DNA of 49,913 bases from Dehalococcoidia bacterium. GTDB taxonomy: Bacteria; Chloroflexota; Dehalococcoidia; Dehalococcoidales; UBA1222. Positions 1 through 43,456 of the stretch are shown in pieces (the first letter of the stretch is position 1; each line of letters starts with the position of its first letter). The position numbers were made by a program, and so were the translations under genes. The notes beneath the pieces were generated by a model. The model had not been told where the DNA came from. It saw only the letters and a list, made by a program, of their open reading frames with translations, and ran no database searches. The stretch covers positions 1-49,913 of the forward strand of contig WREQ01000005.1 of assembly GCA_009779255.1 (NCBI GenBank). Reading direction: 5' to 3'.

Positions 1-93
1 AAAGTACTTCCCAAACCGTCACAGCAATATTGCGTAAGCGGGGGGGGGCGGGGTGGAAGAGGGGAATGAATATTGGGGGGGGGGGGGGGTAGA
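1..93. repeat. Poly-G tracts upstream of the first gene
   Basis: The first 93 bases hold a run of 9 G (40-48) separated by one C from 4 more G (50-53), then a run of 15 G at 75-89. The 15-G run ends five bases before the ATG at 94 and lies inside the reading frame if the upstream TTG at 73 were used. Long homopolymers in front of a start codon can vary in length by slippage, but they are also a common sequencing or assembly error. No gene is otherwise seen here. Confidence 0.6.
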
Positions 94-2352
94 ATGCGAT
101 TAAGAAAGCTATTTGCTATTGAAAGGCCTGCAGAAATGACCAGAAAGAAAGTCGCCGTATTTGGAGATACTGCGCTCAACATATCGTTGGTTGGTAGCCA
201 CCAAAATAGCCCTGCTGTTAAAATGGGTGGCCGTAGTAACGGTGGCGCAGCCATGCTATACAACAATATGGTACAGATGTCCAATGTTAGTAGTATCATT
301 GAGCTTTTGCCAAACACTAAAGAGAGCAAAGACCGAGCCAAAGACTTAAGACAAATTCCAGAATCTGATACTTCCGTATTTGGGTATTCTAGCCAAATTC
401 AAGAATTTGATACTTCCGTATTTGGGTATTCTATCCAGGCAGTGGGAAGATGGGTTAAAAAAAAGAGTAAAATTAAGGATGAAGACGCCGACCGCTTCTT
501 TATAGCTGATACAATAAGCCTCGTTGAAATGAGCGACACTGCTGACGAAGGACCTGATGAGTACGATATACCCCATTCTAAGGAGATGATAAAAGAAGCT
601 GATATTGTGGGCATCTACAGTGTACACGCCACTGGAACGTTCCAATTTAGTGAGGATGACATCGCTAATTTGTTCAAAGAAGACGCAATTGTAGTAGTGC
701 GAAGCAAGCTGTTCGAAAAAACTAAATTTTCACAATTTGTGGAAATGATTAAGCCTCAATTACCAAAAGTCAATGCAATTTTATTATTAACCGCAGATAA
801 TCTTCGCGATGGAAATTTAAATATAAAAAAGCACGGATTGTCATGGGAAAAGTTAGCAGAAGAAACCATTACGGCCTTAAGTTTGACAAAAGCTTTCACA
901 ATTACCACTCCTGATAATCCTAAAGAACACGTTTTCAAATATGTACTGGTTTGCTTTGATAGCGAAGGATTTTTGTTGTGGAATACAAGTGGTGGCAATA
1001 AGGACTTCCAAATGTATGCCTATTGTGATGAGATAGAGAATGATTTTAGTATAAAGCACAACCATTTCCCACCTTGCAAAATGACTACCATGCAGACAGA
1101 GTTAATTGTTTCGTTGGCAGAGTCATCCAGCGACAACCGCAACCTTGATAATCTAATTATTAAAGCTGCCGCAAGAGGATTGTCCAAGATAAGAAAACTC
1201 ATTGTTGGTGGATTTACAAATCGATTTAAAGATTCTGAAGGAAATATATTCGAATCAGAATGGCCACTATATCCTGTGGCTGACTTATTTCCAAGTTCAC
1301 CATGGCCAAAAGATGACGCCAACCTATTACATTTTGACTTGCATAGCCTCGGCGAATATTTAAACCTAGTTGCTGCTGGCAATATGCTCCATTCCAACCA
1401 GTATTCAAGGCTTACTGTACATATAAGCAACGACAGCCCAAACGATTTTAGAGCAATCAATGATATGTGTATGAAAATTGTAAAAGATGGCATAGGCAAA
1501 GAACATAAGGACTTTCCATTTGCACATTATGGTAAGCTAATTTGTATAACCCGAAAAGAAATAGAGGAATTCAGGGGAATATACCATTCGTTGAATAACT
1601 ATAAAGCTAATGCGACAGATGTCCCATTGTCCATCAGTGTTTTTGGAGCACCTGGCACAGGAAAATCGTTCGGCGTCAAAGAAATATCTAAAGCTGTTTT
1701 TCCTGAGGCAGAAACTATAACAGCAAATCTCTCCCAAATTAAAGACCCTGATGAACTAGCAGATATCTTTCAGTTGGCTAGAGACGCAGGTCTCAAAGGA
1801 AAAGTCCCGGTTATCTTTTTCGATGAATTTGATTCTAATTTTGAGGGAAAGAATTTAGGCTGGCTAAAGTATTTTTTAGCGCCGATGCAGGATGGCCTAT
1901 TTTGGACAAAAGGGCGAAGCCATGTTGTCGGCAAAGCTGTCTTTGTATTCGCAGGCAGTATCTTCCATTCACGTGAAGAGTTTAATAGCGCTACAGGTGA
2001 CAACCATGATACAAGCAAACTGAGGGATTTTATTAGCAGGCTCAAGACAAACGTTAATATATTAGGACCGAATGAACCGAGTGGCACTACAATAGGAGCT
2101 ATTACAAGAAAAATCCGACGGGCAGCGCTGCTACGGTCCATGCTGGAGAAAAGGTTAAATATAAATGATAAAGACCACATTAATATCGCAGACAATGTAG
2201 TTCAAGCGTTCCTGGATGTAGAAAACTATATAAATGAGGCGAGGTCAATGGAGGCAATCCTATCGATGAGCTCCATTAATACGAGTGAATTGATTACTTC
2301 ATCATGCATAACACAATATGCGAATGAATTTGCTGAAGGTTTCAATCTTTAG
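94..2352 (+). CDS. AAA+ ATPase with an N-terminal sugar-kinase-like region
   Basis: A 752-residue protein. The C-terminal third is a clear AAA+ module: Walker A GAPGTGKS (about residue 520), Walker B VIFFDEFD (about 575), then a sensor-like stretch ending VFVFAG. The N-terminus (KKVAVFGDTALNISLVG followed by GGRSNGGAA) resembles the first strand and substrate loop of PfkB/ribokinase-type proteins. A stretch near 240-260 (ADNLRDGNLNI...GLSWEKLA) recalls a conserved block I associate with uncharacterised bacterial proteins that pair a kinase-like fold with AAA or RyR domains; this is recollection, not a search. The sequence is visibly more AT-rich than its neighbours, suggesting transfer. A 42-bp tandem duplication lies inside the coding region. 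ATG at 94 is preferred; TTG 73 and ATG 136 are alternatives. It sits alone on the plus strand, and partners may lie left of the window. The role is unknown; a defence or stress function is only a guess. Confidence 0.8.
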   Translation: MRLRKLFAIERPAEMTRKKVAVFGDTALNISLVGSHQNSPAVKMGGRSNGGAAMLYNNMVQMSNVSSIIELLPNTKESKDRAKDLRQIPESDTSVFGYSSQIQEFDTSVFGYSIQAVGRWVKKKSKIKDEDADRFFIADTISLVEMSDTADEGPDEYDIPHSKEMIKEADIVGIYSVHATGTFQFSEDDIANLFKEDAIVVVRSKLFEKTKFSQFVEMIKPQLPKVNAILLLTADNLRDGNLNIKKHGLSWEKLAEETITALSLTKAFTITTPDNPKEHVFKYVLVCFDSEGFLLWNTSGGNKDFQMYAYCDEIENDFSIKHNHFPPCKMTTMQTELIVSLAESSSDNRNLDNLIIKAAARGLSKIRKLIVGGFTNRFKDSEGNIFESEWPLYPVADLFPSSPWPKDDANLLHFDLHSLGEYLNLVAAGNMLHSNQYSRLTVHISNDSPNDFRAINDMCMKIVKDGIGKEHKDFPFAHYGKLICITRKEIEEFRGIYHSLNNYKANATDVPLSISVFGAPGTGKSFGVKEISKAVFPEAETITANLSQIKDPDELADIFQLARDAGLKGKVPVIFFDEFDSNFEGKNLGWLKYFLAPMQDGLFWTKGRSHVVGKAVFVFAGSIFHSREEFNSATGDNHDTSKLRDFISRLKTNVNILGPNEPSGTTIGAITRKIRRAALLRSMLEKRLNINDKDHINIADNVVQAFLDVENYINEARSMEAILSMSSINTSELITSSCITQYANEFAEGFNL
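352..435 (+). repeat. 42-bp in-frame tandem duplication
   Basis: Two adjacent 42-base copies (352-393 and 394-435), nearly identical, with a 26-base core identical in both (366-391 and 408-433). Each encodes 14 residues containing DTSVFGYS, so the frame is preserved. The unit lies in the N-terminal half of the ATPase gene. Confidence 0.85.
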
Positions 2353-2386: not shown

Positions 2387-2522
2387 GTGTAAAATGTAAT
2401 GGCGGCTATATTCGCCCAAAAACTTGACCAACTAATGGTGCGGTTTTCGGAACCGCGCCGGTTTATCCAAACGTTGATGTTGCTGCGGTGTTGCCAAGCA
2501 ACTCACAGCCGCCATTTTACAC
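2387..2522. repeat. Short element with imperfect terminal inverted repeats
   Basis: The left arm at 2387-2407 and the right arm at 2507-2522 are inverted copies of GTGTAAAATGGCGGCT; the left arm carries a 5-base insertion. Between them is a small hairpin GCGGTT-loop-AACCGC (about 2439-2455). The right arm supplies the last codon and stop of the protease gene. This could be a MITE-like insertion or a bidirectional terminator; the position at a GC-content boundary favours the former. Confidence 0.5.
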
Positions 2523-3662
2523 CCAGATTATCGTTACTATATCTTCAATGGCGGATTTAACGACGTTAATCGGTATCGCAAAACCCAGCCCTTCGATATC
2601 TGAACCACTCGATTTGGCGTTGACGATACCGATCAGCTCGCCATAGCGGTTGAACAAGCCGCCTCCGGAATTTCCGGGGTTTACCGCCGCTGATGTTTGC
2701 AATAGATTCATCATCTGCCCTTCGACCGAAATGTTGCGGCTGAGTGCGGAGATTATTCCATCCGTAACCGTACCGCCGAGCTTGCCCAACGGATTGCCGA
2801 TTGCCACCACCAGCTCTCCAACCACAAGTTTATCCGAATCACCAAAAACTGCCGACTGCAGTCCGCTTTCCTGAATTTTCAGCACGGCCAAGTCGGTTTT
2901 GCTGTCGCGCCCGATTAAGGCAGCTTCATGTTCAACCCCGTTTTTGAGCCGGACGGTAATCTTGCTCGCTCCCTCGATTACATGATTATTTGTGACGATA
3001 TATCCGTCTGATGAGATAATAACTCCGCTTCCGGCACCCTCCGCAATATACGAACCGAAGCGTCCGATATTGACTACAGTTTCGGTGTAAATTTCCACCA
3101 CGCTTTCTGAGGTAAGTGCGGCTATTTCCACGATTGTCAGCGCTTGCGACGGCTCCGTGACTGTTGTTGCCGGGGAGACGGGATTACCCCAAAGATAGTT
3201 GGCGAGATATGCACCGCCAAACCCAGAAGCCGCCGACACTATTAAGCACAATACGACCAGTGCCGTGGCGAATTCCATGCGGCCGGATTTCGGTTTTTTT
3301 GAGGACTTGGAAGCAATGGCATACAGCGCGGGGTAACCGGCCGTGTCTGCCGCAAACTTATACGTCCTGCCTGTTTCAACCCCGTAGCCTTCAGGATGGG
3401 TTTCAACAACAGTTGCATTATGTGCCTGATTCCTGGACGCAGGTTCTTCCTGATGACTAATCGCGGGAGTGGCCGTATATGGCGCGCTCGAATCGTCCGC
3501 ATCCTCCGCAGACTGAGGAGATATATCTGTTTCGCCGCCGGCGTTTTTCGACTGACTTTCCGCATCGGCTTCAGCAGATATCTGGCTCTCCGGCGTCTGA
3601 TTTTCCTGCTCCTGATTCTTTAACCCCAAATCCTCAGACCCGTGATTCTCTTCTTCAAACAT
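2517..3662 (-). CDS. HtrA/DegP-type membrane-anchored serine protease lacking a PDZ domain
   Basis: A trypsin-like protease of about 381 residues. A long acidic, low-complexity, probably cytoplasmic N-terminus (about 1-125, rich in E, Q, S) precedes one membrane segment (ATALVVLCLIVSAASGF), which places the protease domain outside. The catalytic triad is visible: His in TNNHVIEG, Asp in SKTDLAVLKI, Ser in NPGNSGG. The HtrA family normally continues into one or two PDZ domains that sense misfolded ends; here the protein stops just after the protease fold, with the last codon and stop provided by an inverted-repeat arm. The ATG at 3662 has a GGAAAGG ribosome site and overlaps the upstream MFS stop by eight bases; GTG 3701 and ATG 3680 are alternatives. 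A protein-quality-control role at the cell surface is inferred; loss of PDZ may alter substrate choice. Confidence 0.85.
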   Translation of the reverse strand: MFEEENHGSEDLGLKNQEQENQTPESQISAEADAESQSKNAGGETDISPQSAEDADDSSAPYTATPAISHQEEPASRNQAHNATVVETHPEGYGVETGRTYKFAADTAGYPALYAIASKSSKKPKSGRMEFATALVVLCLIVSAASGFGGAYLANYLWGNPVSPATTVTEPSQALTIVEIAALTSESVVEIYTETVVNIGRFGSYIAEGAGSGVIISSDGYIVTNNHVIEGASKITVRLKNGVEHEAALIGRDSKTDLAVLKIQESGLQSAVFGDSDKLVVGELVVAIGNPLGKLGGTVTDGIISALSRNISVEGQMMNLLQTSAAVNPGNSGGGLFNRYGELIGIVNAKSSGSDIEGLGFAIPINVVKSAIEDIVTIIWV

Positions 3663-4902
3663 ACTGGCCTGCCTTTCCATGTAATCCGGTATTGTCGCCA
3701 CCGGAAATTGTGCGCATATTTTTCATAAACACCACCAAAATCGCCGTCGCCACCAGCGACATTCCCGCCCCGAACAAAAACGGCACCTGTGCTCCGAAAG
3801 CTGTCCACAGCCCTCCCGCGATTACGCTGGCGGGCAAAAGCGCGATACCCGCGATGGTGGAGTGCAAACCGAGCATGGTTCCCTTTAATTCGGGCGGCGA
3901 TATTTCCGCGACAAAAGCGCGCTCAACACCGGTAATCATAGCAGTGTAAATCCCATAAAGCACGAACACGGCCACCATCGGAGCCAGACTGTCAGCAAAA
4001 GCGAAGCCCAGGTAACAGAGCGCAAATGAAATATACCCCGGTACGAGCAGATTTTTCCGTCCGATTTTGTCCGACAGCCTGCCGAACGGGAGCACCAGAA
4101 GCGATGCGATTATGCTGTAAATAAAATACAGCAGGATGACGTTTACATCGTCGAATCCTGCCGCTTTTGCTTTCAGCAGGATAAAAACATTCGATGAATT
4201 ACCCAGCGTAAAAATGAACACCACCAATAGATACAGTTTTAACTGCCCATCTATTTTTTTGACATTCTTCCAGAACGGCTCCCTCTTTTTCGTTTCACGC
4301 GGTTTATTATTCTGCCTGACGAATACGAACATCAACAGGCCGAGAACAGCGGGGATTATTGAAATTGCGAACAGTCTTTTGTAATCGAAACCATCCGCTC
4401 CGCCAAGCGAACGCAGAATAAAGTATGTAATCAGTATTCCGAGCGCAGTTCCGAGCATATCCATGGCTTTATGCAAGCCGAACGCCCTGCCCATACCATC
4501 CTTGTCCGCGCTTTCGCTGACAAGCACATCACGCGGTGCGGTACGTATACCTTTTCCTATTCTGTCAATGCAACGCGCCGCCAGAATACCCACCCATGAC
4601 CCAGCAAACAATAGCGCCAGTTTATAAAACAACCCCGCCGCATACCCCGAAAACGCAATCGCCTTTTTCTTCTGAGACCTGTCGGTGGCATAGCCGCTGA
4701 ACACCTTCAGCAAGCTTGCAAGGCTCTCCGCAATTCCCTCTATCACGCCGACCAGCACGGGCGTAGCCCCGAACGCCGAAACAAGATAAAGCGGAATCAG
4801 TGGATAGACCATCTCGGTGCTGATGTCCGTGAAAAAGCTGACCAGCCCGAGGAAAAATATGTTTATAATACCGGCGTTTTTTACCCGGTTTTTACGTTCC
4901 AT
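3655..4902 (-). CDS. MFS transporter
   Basis: A hydrophobic protein of about 415 residues with roughly 12 membrane segments, typical of the major facilitator superfamily. The cytoplasmic loop 2-3 motif appears as GYATDRSQKKKAI, and the second half repeats it as GRLSDKIGRKNLL. The N-terminus (FFTDISTEMVYPLIPLYL) resembles a subgroup of MFS permeases often annotated as drug or metabolite exporters; the substrate cannot be read from sequence. ATG 4902 is chosen because it lies one base after the stop of the CDF gene, with a G-rich ribosome site upstream; the longer reading frame to 4983 would overlap that gene. The 3' end overlaps the protease start, so the three genes are probably cotranscribed. 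Confidence 0.88.
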   Translation of the reverse strand: MERKNRVKNAGIINIFFLGLVSFFTDISTEMVYPLIPLYLVSAFGATPVLVGVIEGIAESLASLLKVFSGYATDRSQKKKAIAFSGYAAGLFYKLALLFAGSWVGILAARCIDRIGKGIRTAPRDVLVSESADKDGMGRAFGLHKAMDMLGTALGILITYFILRSLGGADGFDYKRLFAISIIPAVLGLLMFVFVRQNNKPRETKKREPFWKNVKKIDGQLKLYLLVVFIFTLGNSSNVFILLKAKAAGFDDVNVILLYFIYSIIASLLVLPFGRLSDKIGRKNLLVPGYISFALCYLGFAFADSLAPMVAVFVLYGIYTAMITGVERAFVAEISPPELKGTMLGLHSTIAGIALLPASVIAGGLWTAFGAQVPFLFGAGMSLVATAILVVFMKNMRTISGGDNTGLHGKAGQYV

Positions 4903-22277: not shown

Positions 22278-23120
22278 CTAAAAAGTCTTGTTGAAAATAT
22301 TTAGCTTGTTGAAGACGTTTAGAAAGAATTCCATTAGGCAGTGCCGCCCCTGAGTTAGCTGGAACTTTATATTGTTCTCCACGCAGTACTGGTGAACGTA
22401 AGAATTTGGGGAGCAGGTGACGGTGAGGTTGGGGCACCTGGCAAAAGCATGATCTCCAATACTCTTTACGCTGCTCGGTATAGTTATACTTGTCAGCGCG
22501 CGGCAATGAGTAAAAGCATAATCTCCAATACTTCTTACACCATTCGGTATGGTTATACTACGCAAATTTACACAATTGGCAAAAACGCCATTCCCAATTT
22601 TCGTTAAGCCTTTTGGAATAGTTATGTCAGTTAGAAACATACACAGGCCGAAGGCGTAATCTCCGATACTCTTTACGCTTTCCGGTATGGTTATGCGCTC
22701 CAGGAAAAAGCAATAGTAGAAAGCCCCTTCTTCAATACTGGTTACTCCGTTTGGAAGTTTTATAGTTGTCAAACGTGAGGTGCCGCTAAAAGCCTCTTTA
22801 CCTATACATGTTACACTCTTGCCTTCGATTTTATCAGGAATAACAACATCGCCATCTCTGCCAACATATCCTGTTATAGTTACGCTATTGCCCTTGATTT
22901 CATAGAGAAAATCCGAAGCAGGATTTGGCTCGGTTCTGTCTGGATTGGTAGGGCGAGGCCACCCTGTGCTGATAAGTGGGATTGTGTTATCAGGTGGCGG
23001 CGTATATGATGGTGTGAGTGTTGACGAATAAAACGCGGCATCAACATTACCGACGCAAGAAGCCATCATTGCCGTCACACTTACGGTTAATATGGCACAA
23101 AACAATTTATGCTTTGCCAT
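22278..23120 (-). CDS. BspA-type leucine-rich-repeat lipoprotein
   Basis: 280 residues. The N-terminal signal ends with a lipobox-like MMASC (Cys about 22), then a Pro/Thr-rich linker (TPSYTPPPDNTIPL). About five BspA/LRR_5 repeats of 23 residues follow, each of the form SIxIPxGVxSIGDYAFxxC, closing with a typical cap (SPNSYVHQYCVENNIKF). Such proteins are surface-exposed and usually bind other proteins or cells. It lies in the same direction inside the ilv-leu operon, between ilvC and leuA, with 196- and 222-bp gaps and flanking direct repeats. It has no evident link to amino-acid synthesis, so it is probably an insertion. Confidence 0.9.
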   Translation of the reverse strand: MAKHKLFCAILTVSVTAMMASCVGNVDAAFYSSTLTPSYTPPPDNTIPLISTGWPRPTNPDRTEPNPASDFLYEIKGNSVTITGYVGRDGDVVIPDKIEGKSVTCIGKEAFSGTSRLTTIKLPNGVTSIEEGAFYYCFFLERITIPESVKSIGDYAFGLCMFLTDITIPKGLTKIGNGVFANCVNLRSITIPNGVRSIGDYAFTHCRALTSITIPSSVKSIGDHAFARCPNLTVTCSPNSYVHQYCVENNIKFQLTQGRHCLMEFFLNVFNKLNIFNKTF

Positions 23121-42131: not shown

Positions 42132-42608
42132 CTATACCACAACGATGGTAATGGGGTCTAATTGACCACCGAAACTGACGTGATTATCAGAATCGTCATA
42201 CACACTCATGCCATAGTGGACATCCAGGATATATACCCCAGGTATCACTAACCAGATATTTTGCGTTCTGGTCAGGCCTTCGCCGGCTTTAAGGATACCC
42301 TTGTACCGCAGCCCTGAAGGATCGGCATGGCCAAGGAAGCTATCTATCGGGCGCAGCATGAAATAGAAGCATGGCTGCGATCCATTGGTCACGATATTAA
42401 CGTCTTGCCCGCTGTTATTAGTCACCGTAATCGTAAAAGACAGCACTTCACCACGGAAAAAGACTGTCCTATTCAAATCAATAGCCAGGGGAAATTCATT
42501 TGGGTATACGCCAGCGCTTTGAGGTACCTTGATAAAGGCATTTACGGCAAGTACATACACAATCACGACTGGGATAATCAGGCACACCCAATACTTGCGC
42601 ATTTTCAT
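42132..42608 (-). CDS. Small membrane-anchored Ig-like protein, copy 1
   Basis: 158 residues. One N-terminal membrane segment (YWVCLIIPVVIVYVLAVNAF) anchors a beta-rich outer domain: PLAIDLNRTVFFRGEVLSFT, ITVTNNSGQDVNIVTNG and IWLVIPGVYILDVHYG. The pattern (G-E-x-L-x-F-x-I-x-V-T-N-N-S-G) is that of an Ig-like or BsuPI-type domain. Function unknown. ATG 42608 is chosen for GGAGGT ten bases upstream. It is a tandem copy of the next gene (over 80 percent identical by eye), but lacks a 14-residue stretch (about IVLTCDTGDCWISI) near the end. A perfect 17-bp hairpin lies 32 bases upstream. Confidence 0.8.
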   Translation of the reverse strand: MKMRKYWVCLIIPVVIVYVLAVNAFIKVPQSAGVYPNEFPLAIDLNRTVFFRGEVLSFTITVTNNSGQDVNIVTNGSQPCFYFMLRPIDSFLGHADPSGLRYKGILKAGEGLTRTQNIWLVIPGVYILDVHYGMSVYDDSDNHVSFGGQLDPITIVVV

Positions 42609-42639
42609 CTGATTTGGCACCTCCAATTTTAACGGTGGT

Positions 42640-42940: not shown

Positions 42941-43456
42941 CTATACCACAACGATGGTAATGGGGTCTAAGTGACCACCGAAACTGACATGATTATCAGA
43001 TATGCTTATCCAGCAATCACCTGTGTCGCAAGTTAGTACAATATCGTCATATATCATCATGCCATAGTGGACATCCAGGATATATACCCCAGGTATCACT
43101 AACCAGATATTTTGCGTTCTGGTCAGGCTTTCGCCGGCTTTAAGGATCTCTTGGCGCGGCATTGTAAACTCGCCGTGACCAATGAAGTTATCTATCGGGC
43201 GCAGCATGAAATAGAAGCATGGCTGCGAGCCGTTGGTCACGATATTAACGTCTTGCCCGCTGTTATTAGTCACCGTAATCGTAAAAGACAGCACTTCACC
43301 GCGGAAAAAGACTGTTCTATTCAAGTCAATAGCCAGGGGGAATTCATTGGGGTATACACCGGCGCTTTGAGGCACCTTGATAAAGGCATTTACAGCAAAG
43401 ACATACACAATCACGACAGGGATAATCAGGCACACCCAATATTTGCGCATTTCCAT
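42941..43456 (-). CDS. Small membrane-anchored Ig-like protein, copy 2
   Basis: 171 residues. The membrane segment and outer beta domain match copy 1 almost throughout; differences are a changed loop (EFTMPRQEI) and 14 extra residues (IVLTCDTGDCWISI) that contain two Cys, possibly a disulphide. ATG 43456 is used; the third codon, also ATG, is better spaced from AAGGGGG. It starts seven bases after the birA stop, so it may be cotranscribed with birA. Confidence 0.8.
   Translation of the reverse strand: MEMRKYWVCLIIPVVIVYVFAVNAFIKVPQSAGVYPNEFPLAIDLNRTVFFRGEVLSFTITVTNNSGQDVNIVTNGSQPCFYFMLRPIDNFIGHGEFTMPRQEILKAGESLTRTQNIWLVIPGVYILDVHYGMMIYDDIVLTCDTGDCWISISDNHVSFGGHLDPITIVVV

What the first reader, a model, noticed from the sequence alone, without database searches (positions are those of the whole stretch)
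94..2352. AT-rich AAA+ ATPase with a kinase-like N-terminus, possibly part of an undescribed system
A Walker A/B AAA+ module is joined to a long N-terminal region with sugar-kinase-like sequence and a GLSWEKLAEE block. The composition differs from all neighbours and the gene sits at the window edge, so partner genes may lie to the left. Proteins that couple sensor-like and AAA+ domains are common in prokaryotic conflict systems, but no function is shown here.
Basis: partly seen in the sequence, partly recalled or inferred. Interest (0 to 1): 0.6.

Follow-up and report, generated by a model that had tools for sequence, protein, structure and literature searches.

The report
Lone AAA+ ATPase from signalling operon family
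The gene at the contig's left end encodes a very divergent member of an undescribed bacterial ATPase family whose relatives sit in operons with TIR, SLOG and ryanodine-receptor-domain genes that look like a nucleotide-signalling immune system, but this copy has lost, or been cut off from, those partners.

Summary
An intact 738-residue ORF (best start 136) with an AAA+ module and a long N-terminal region opens contig C5 of a 77%-complete Chloroflexota MAG. Its GC (39%) is the lowest of the long ORFs in the window. The window starts at the contig end, so no DNA to the left exists.

The protein belongs to a sporadic family (about 1-3% of genomes per Chloroflexota class searched; also two plasmids and one mobile-element-like contig). 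Pfam covers only part of its AAA domain. In 17 of 21 Chloroflexota loci the family gene lies beside or is fused to SLOG-like (13), TIR (11) or TM-TrkA_N-(RyR) channel (9) genes, against none in 521 kb of control DNA. Sixteen members carry C-terminal RyR domains; 12 keep the exact H-W-H-D residues that phage RyDEP uses on cADPR immune signals.

The N-terminus is weakly similar to PfkB kinases. In the aligned motif every homologue lacks the catalytic Asp, so it would be a sensor or scaffold, not a kinase. Both structure predictions failed.

This copy has no RyR domain, and no SLOG, TIR or RyR gene was found in its assembly. Short relatives carry SLOG-TIR divergently upstream, which here would lie off the contig. 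Family: new variant of a known kind. This copy's function: unproven.

The parts
1..93 (.). contig end with G-runs of 9 and 17; unreliable sequence, probably a read or assembly end effect
   Evidence: 8 overlapping GGGGGGGGG matches, 0.67 expected
136..2352 (+). CDS, 738 aa: N-terminal degenerate PfkB-like domain plus AAA+ module, no RyR domain (the ATG at 94 is an alternative start)
136..1224 (+). N-terminal domain, conserved across the family, no Pfam match
   Evidence: own profile E=5e-85
160..180 (+). FGDTALN, equivalent of the family's GDVTxDW strand
352..437 (+). two in-frame tandem copies of a 42-bp unit, 93% matching, seen in no relative
   Evidence: alignment
835..864 (+). GLSWEKLAEE, family motif [LI]SWERTAQD
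1069..1104 (+). position equivalent to the PfkB GAGD motif; reads PPCKMTTMQTEL, catalytic Asp and motif Gly both absent
1462..2325 (+). AAA+ module
   Evidence: Pfam AAA 1.5e-6; family AAA profile E=5e-122
1645..1668 (+). Walker A GAPGTGKS
1810..1836 (+). Walker B VIFFDEFDS
2026..2043 (+). DFISRL, near-invariant family motif with a possible sensor or arginine-finger Arg
   Evidence: role inferred
2517..3701 (-). degQ/HtrA-like serine protease gene, convergent neighbour, not seen beside the relatives examined
   Evidence: neighbourhoods

Best explanation
The gene encodes a short, divergent member of a family of [degenerate PfkB-like]-AAA+ proteins that form the regulatory core of a TIR/SLOG/RyR nucleotide-signalling conflict (anti-phage-type) system. 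Shown here: the family, its domain architecture, and its recurrent linkage or fusion to SLOG, TIR and TM-TrkA_N-RyR genes. Inferred: TIR proteins turn NAD+ into ADPR/cADPR-type signals on infection. SLOG and RyR domains bind (or, where the H-W-H-D quartet is complete, could cleave) that signal. The AAA+ module, with a catalytically dead ribokinase-like domain as ligand or partner sensor, uses ATP to set the threshold for effectors: the TM-TrkA_N channel (membrane leak) and TIR (NAD+ depletion). In this copy the RyR part is absent. As in the short relatives L047 and L113, a SLOG-TIR pair is predicted on the minus strand just left of the contig end.
For: Family membership: the window protein matches the family N-terminal (5e-85) and AAA (5e-122) profiles; these were built with the window included, but pairwise tblastn to two plasmid homologues is also strong (3e-39, 4e-38). 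Linkage: 17 of 21 Chloroflexota loci have at least one of SLOG (13, four as C-terminal fusions: L106, L109, L110, L111), TIR (11) or TM-TrkA_N channel (9); none of these profiles hits 521 kb of control DNA. In L045 the SLOG gene overlaps the AAA gene by 4 bp. Pfam confirms TIR_2, TrkA_N and RyR; YAcAr (SLOG family) is the commonest match of the SLOG set, 6 of 13 members, best 0.0027. Ligand: phage RyDEP binds and cleaves 2'/3'cADPR with H75, W78, H100, D117 (PMC13232231); 12 of 16 RyR-bearing AAA proteins keep H-x2-W-x21-H-x16-D (shuffled 2 of 20,000). Geometry: in short members L047 and L113 SLOG+TIR are divergent and upstream, with SLOG starting about 160-190 bp or more from the AAA start, further than the 135 bp available here.
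Against: No partner is visible for this copy, and RyR, SLOG and TIR searches of its own assembly are empty; the assembly is incomplete and the RyR and SLOG searches had no positive control. The window protein sits on the longest branch of the tree (5.8 changes per site, no close relative, unusual composition) and has lost motifs that almost all others keep (DDANLGFR, the Gly of GxxT). One short member, L114, is a true orphan beside comM and his genes. None of the 8 channel RyR proteins has the exact quartet. The PfkB relation is weak and the fold was not obtained. No function has been tested.
Confidence: 0.5

Rival explanations
1. The window copy is an orphan or decaying remnant: a horizontally acquired regulator that has lost its RyR domain and partners and no longer serves the system.
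For: L114 is an orphan short member; the window copy has the longest branch, lost motifs, a 42-bp internal duplication, and no partner in the assembly.
Against: The ORF is intact over 738 codons with all AAA motifs conserved; the left flank is simply missing.
Confidence: 0.25
2. The end of contig C5 is an assembly chimera or contaminant fragment: an AT-rich foreign gene joined to Chloroflexota DNA.
For: G-runs at the contig end, lowest GC of the long ORFs, no orthologue in 60 relatives.
Against: A complete gene plus 164 bp of intergenic DNA before degQ argues against a simple read-end artefact; family members occur in four other genomes of the same class; other AT-rich ORFs lie within the contig.
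Confidence: 0.12
3. The gene is cargo of a plasmid or integrative element and serves that element (inter-element exclusion or plasmid maintenance) rather than chromosomal phage defence.
For: Homologues on plasmids of Methylobacterium and Streptomyces and on a contig with a VirD4/TraD-like ATPase, a ParB-like protein and a DNA methylase (L044).
Against: No mobility gene was seen in this window; most relatives are on chromosomal contigs in TIR/SLOG operons.
Confidence: 0.1
4. An ordinary housekeeping AAA+ ATPase (proteasome or chaperone type) with an unrelated N-terminal domain.
For: The AAA core resembles proteasomal ATPases best in Pfam and PDB searches.
Against: Patchy distribution of about 1-3% of genomes, absence from all relatives, and recurrent TIR/SLOG/RyR partners.
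Confidence: 0.03

Closest known systems
Thoeris (TIR ThsB making cADPR isomers; ThsA effectors such as SIR2-SLOG)
   Same: TIR and SLOG-type genes co-occur; a NAD+-derived signal is likely
   Different: SLOG is separate or fused to AAA-RyR, not to SIR2; an AAA+/degenerate-kinase protein and a RyR channel are added; the window copy has none of the Thoeris genes
Phage RyDEP (RyR-domain anti-Thoeris protein, PMC13232231)
   Same: RyR/R12 domain PF02026 with the H-W-H-D ligand quartet at the same spacing in 12 of 16 family members
   Different: RyDEP is a phage counter-defence protein; here the domain lies on the bacterial side, fused to AAA+ and to channels; absent from the window protein
SLOG-TIR conflict systems of the Burroughs/Aravind type (named in PMC7824862 and PMC7159879)
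   Same: same domain vocabulary and operon logic
   Different: no account of a PfkB-like-AAA-RyR core was found in the papers searched; the 2015 founding paper was not held, so prior mention cannot be excluded
IetAS
   Same: weak IetA profile match around Walker A (PADLOC E=0.0057, residues 493-541)
   Different: only about 49 residues match; the neighbouring degQ-like protease is convergent and not found beside relatives
PfkB/ribokinase family kinases
   Same: GD start strand, GG segment, VVVSxGxxGA segment and GxxT block in PfkB order
   Different: catalytic Asp of GAGD absent in all members; no Pfam PfkB match

Membership tests
AAA+ ATPase | Walker A and Walker B, Pfam AAA over cut-off | tested here: met
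PfkB/ribokinase | GAGD motif with catalytic Asp | tested here: not met
   Asp absent in 22 relatives and the window
PfkB/ribokinase | sequence-profile membership (PF00294) | tested here: not met
   no Pfam match for the N-terminal domain; only weak profile-profile similarity
PfkB/ribokinase | ribokinase fold | tested here: inconclusive
   AlphaFold models unusable, pLDDT 40.7 and 33.6
[PfkB-like]-AAA(-RyR) family defined here | both N-terminal and AAA profiles match along one protein | tested here: met
[PfkB-like]-AAA(-RyR) family defined here | C-terminal RyR domain (16 members; not in the short forms L038, L044, L047, L113, L114) | tested here: not met
TIR/SLOG/RyR operon | adjacent SLOG, TIR or TrkA_N-RyR gene | tested here: inconclusive
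   none to the right or elsewhere in the 77% assembly; left flank missing
Thoeris | ThsB (TIR) plus ThsA effector | tested here: not met
   no TIR in G000
IetAS | IetA over its model length plus protease IetS | tested here: not met
   49-residue Walker A match only

The most novel reading that the evidence does not exclude
A bacterial immune system in which TIR-made cADPR-type signals are read by host RyR domains on an AAA+ switch with a dead ribokinase-fold sensor and on a TrkA_N channel: a prokaryotic counterpart of the cADPR-ryanodine receptor axis, of which the window gene is a divergent core component.
Probability: 0.3. Interest if true: 0.82.

Novelty: new variant of a known kind. Interest (0 to 1): 0.5.

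Why it matters
RyR domains were recently shown to bind and cleave TIR-made cADPR immune signals on the phage side, while their role in bacterial hosts and the cADPR-RyR link in animals remain open. Operons that place RyR domains on an AAA+ switch and on a channel next to TIR and SLOG genes give a compact bacterial setting in which to test whether RyR domains gate channels in response to cADPR-type signals.

Tried and rejected
AlphaFold of the window protein (3-row alignment, pLDDT 40.7) and of the L044 N-terminal domain (single sequence, 33.6) failed, so no fold search was run. Relatives obtained through the genome search, the fetch from genomes and the fetch of an annotated region were not handed to structure prediction because its stated rule lists other sources. 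phmmer of L113 and L047 N-termini against PDB: nothing. A 17-member profile: no significant hit. hhalign of a smaller N-terminal set against PfkB: not distinguishable from reversed PfkB. Viral-collection scans gave one true relative, L044. The 33 archaeal proteasome-type hits share only the AAA core and were set aside. PADLOC: no known defence model matches the family protein beyond a short Walker A stretch. Synteny of the degQ-queA block in relatives is not conserved enough to date an insertion. IetAS and proteasome-type identities rejected on profile extent. SLOG was not matched by PDB profiles and rests on weak Pfam matches.

Full report
Observation. The ORF is real and intact: 73-2352 is open on the plus strand; the likeliest CDS is 136-2352 (738 aa). 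GC is 39.4% against 42-60% for the other long ORFs. The window is contig G000:C5 from its first base, so partner genes to the left cannot be inspected. The first 93 bases contain G-runs of 9 and 17 and should not be trusted.

Host. G000 is a 1.14-Mb, 77%-complete MAG of 60 contigs.

Family. No orthologue exists in 60 relatives. Homologues were found on a Methylobacterium plasmid, a Streptomyces plasmid, a mobile-element-like contig (L044) and, by profile, in 5 of 350 phylum genomes, and in 6 of 396, 5 of 343, 6 of 177 and 5 of 158 genomes of the classes searched (counts include the query genome or centre genome, and one distant AAA-only hit). A Bradyrhizobium protein has the AAA part fused to an LD_cluster2 SLOG domain. 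Identity of the window protein to relatives is 23-28% overall and 33-42% in the AAA part. In the tree it has the longest branch (5.8) and no supported sister.

Architecture. Members share an N-terminal domain of about 330 aa and an AAA module; 16 proteins add one to four RyR matches (PF02026), and four of these add a SLOG domain at the C-terminus. Short forms without RyR are the window, L038, L044, L047, L113 and L114. The N-terminal domain has no Pfam match worth the name in any of 12 members.

Is the N-terminus a kinase? With 23 sequences, hhalign against 8 PfkB kinases gives score 25.8, E=0.015, above 60 of 60 column-shuffled controls (max 22.6). It aligns the block GxMIGYTTCLTAG with DTTGAGDAFAAG. 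At the Asp position the family has T, S or another residue, never D; L047 reads GAGS and L113 GLGT. A smaller set gave no signal, PDB profile hits to 1-phosphofructokinase are E=0.25, and structure prediction failed. I conclude: probable ribokinase ancestry, catalytically dead if so; moderate confidence only.

Neighbourhood. Of 21 Chloroflexota loci, 17 carry at least one of three partners: SLOG-like 13 (four fused), TIR 11, TM-TrkA_N channel 9, most of the channels with RyR repeats. The four without are L059, L088 and L115 on contigs of at most 4.1 kb, and L114, a genuine orphan. The same profiles found no SLOG, TIR, channel or RyR in 521 kb of other DNA held here; much of that control is archaeal, so it is a rough control. 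Pfam supports the TIR_2, TrkA_N and RyR calls, and YAcAr (SLOG) is the commonest match for the SLOG set, best E 0.0027. L056 and L058 have a nucleoside-deoxyribosyltransferase-like gene where others have SLOG. A SIR2-family gene lies near the Methylobacterium member.

RyR ligand. [quoted passage not shown] Twelve of 16 RyR-bearing AAA proteins contain H-x2-W-x21-H-x16-D, the same spacing; shuffled regions gave 2 in 20,000. The preprint reports the ligand residues to be conserved in PF02026 generally, so this shows competence, not specificity. None of 8 channel RyR proteins has the exact quartet.

This copy. It has no RyR domain and its right-hand neighbour is a convergent degQ-like gene. Searches for RyR, SLOG and TIR in its assembly were empty. 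The RyR search rang in no control genome and the SLOG search had no control, so those two absences are weak; TIR rang in 4 control genomes. In short members L047 and L113 the SLOG and TIR genes are divergent and upstream of the AAA gene. In the window that place is beyond the contig end. L114 shows that an orphan is also possible.

Mechanism. Shown: domains, motifs, linkage and fusions. Inferred from established TIR, SLOG and RyR biochemistry: TIR makes an ADPR-type signal, SLOG and RyR domains read or clear it, the AAA module switches, and the channel or NAD+ loss stops growth. The direction (activation or signal removal by RyR) is not determined.

Verdict. Observation confirmed; interpretation partly supported; the family is a new variant of a known kind (TIR/SLOG nucleotide-signalling systems). 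The founding SLOG paper was not available, so earlier mention of the family cannot be excluded.

Noticed in passing
window 42132-42626 and 42941-43456 (-): Two near-identical AT-rich small ORFs (MRKYWVCLIIPVVIVYV...) in tandem between the his operon and a birA-like gene; a recent duplication.
   Followed up: no
window 352-437: In-frame 42-bp tandem duplication inside the N-terminal domain, absent from relatives.
   Followed up: partly
window 22278-23120 (-): AT-rich (43% GC) lipoprotein-like ORF between ilvC and leuA-type genes of a branched-chain amino-acid cluster.
   Followed up: no
L047 (9288-14887) and L114 (3758-5968): In two genomes of one family the short AAA gene sits at the same place, after comM-like and before his genes; one has SLOG and TIR there, the other does not, a natural presence/absence pair.
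   Followed up: partly
L056 11618-12820 and L058 11049-12244: Nucleoside 2-deoxyribosyltransferase-like gene in place of SLOG in the operon, next to several TIR-type proteins with WD40 or other repeats.
   Followed up: partly
L116 and L111: The AAA gene appears broken (fragments or two overlapping frames) although SLOG, TIR or channel partners remain; decay or sequencing error.
   Followed up: no
L044 6240-9134: Family member on a contig catalogued as viral that carries VirD4/TraD-like, ParB-like and methylase genes; looks like a plasmid or integrative element rather than a phage.
   Followed up: no
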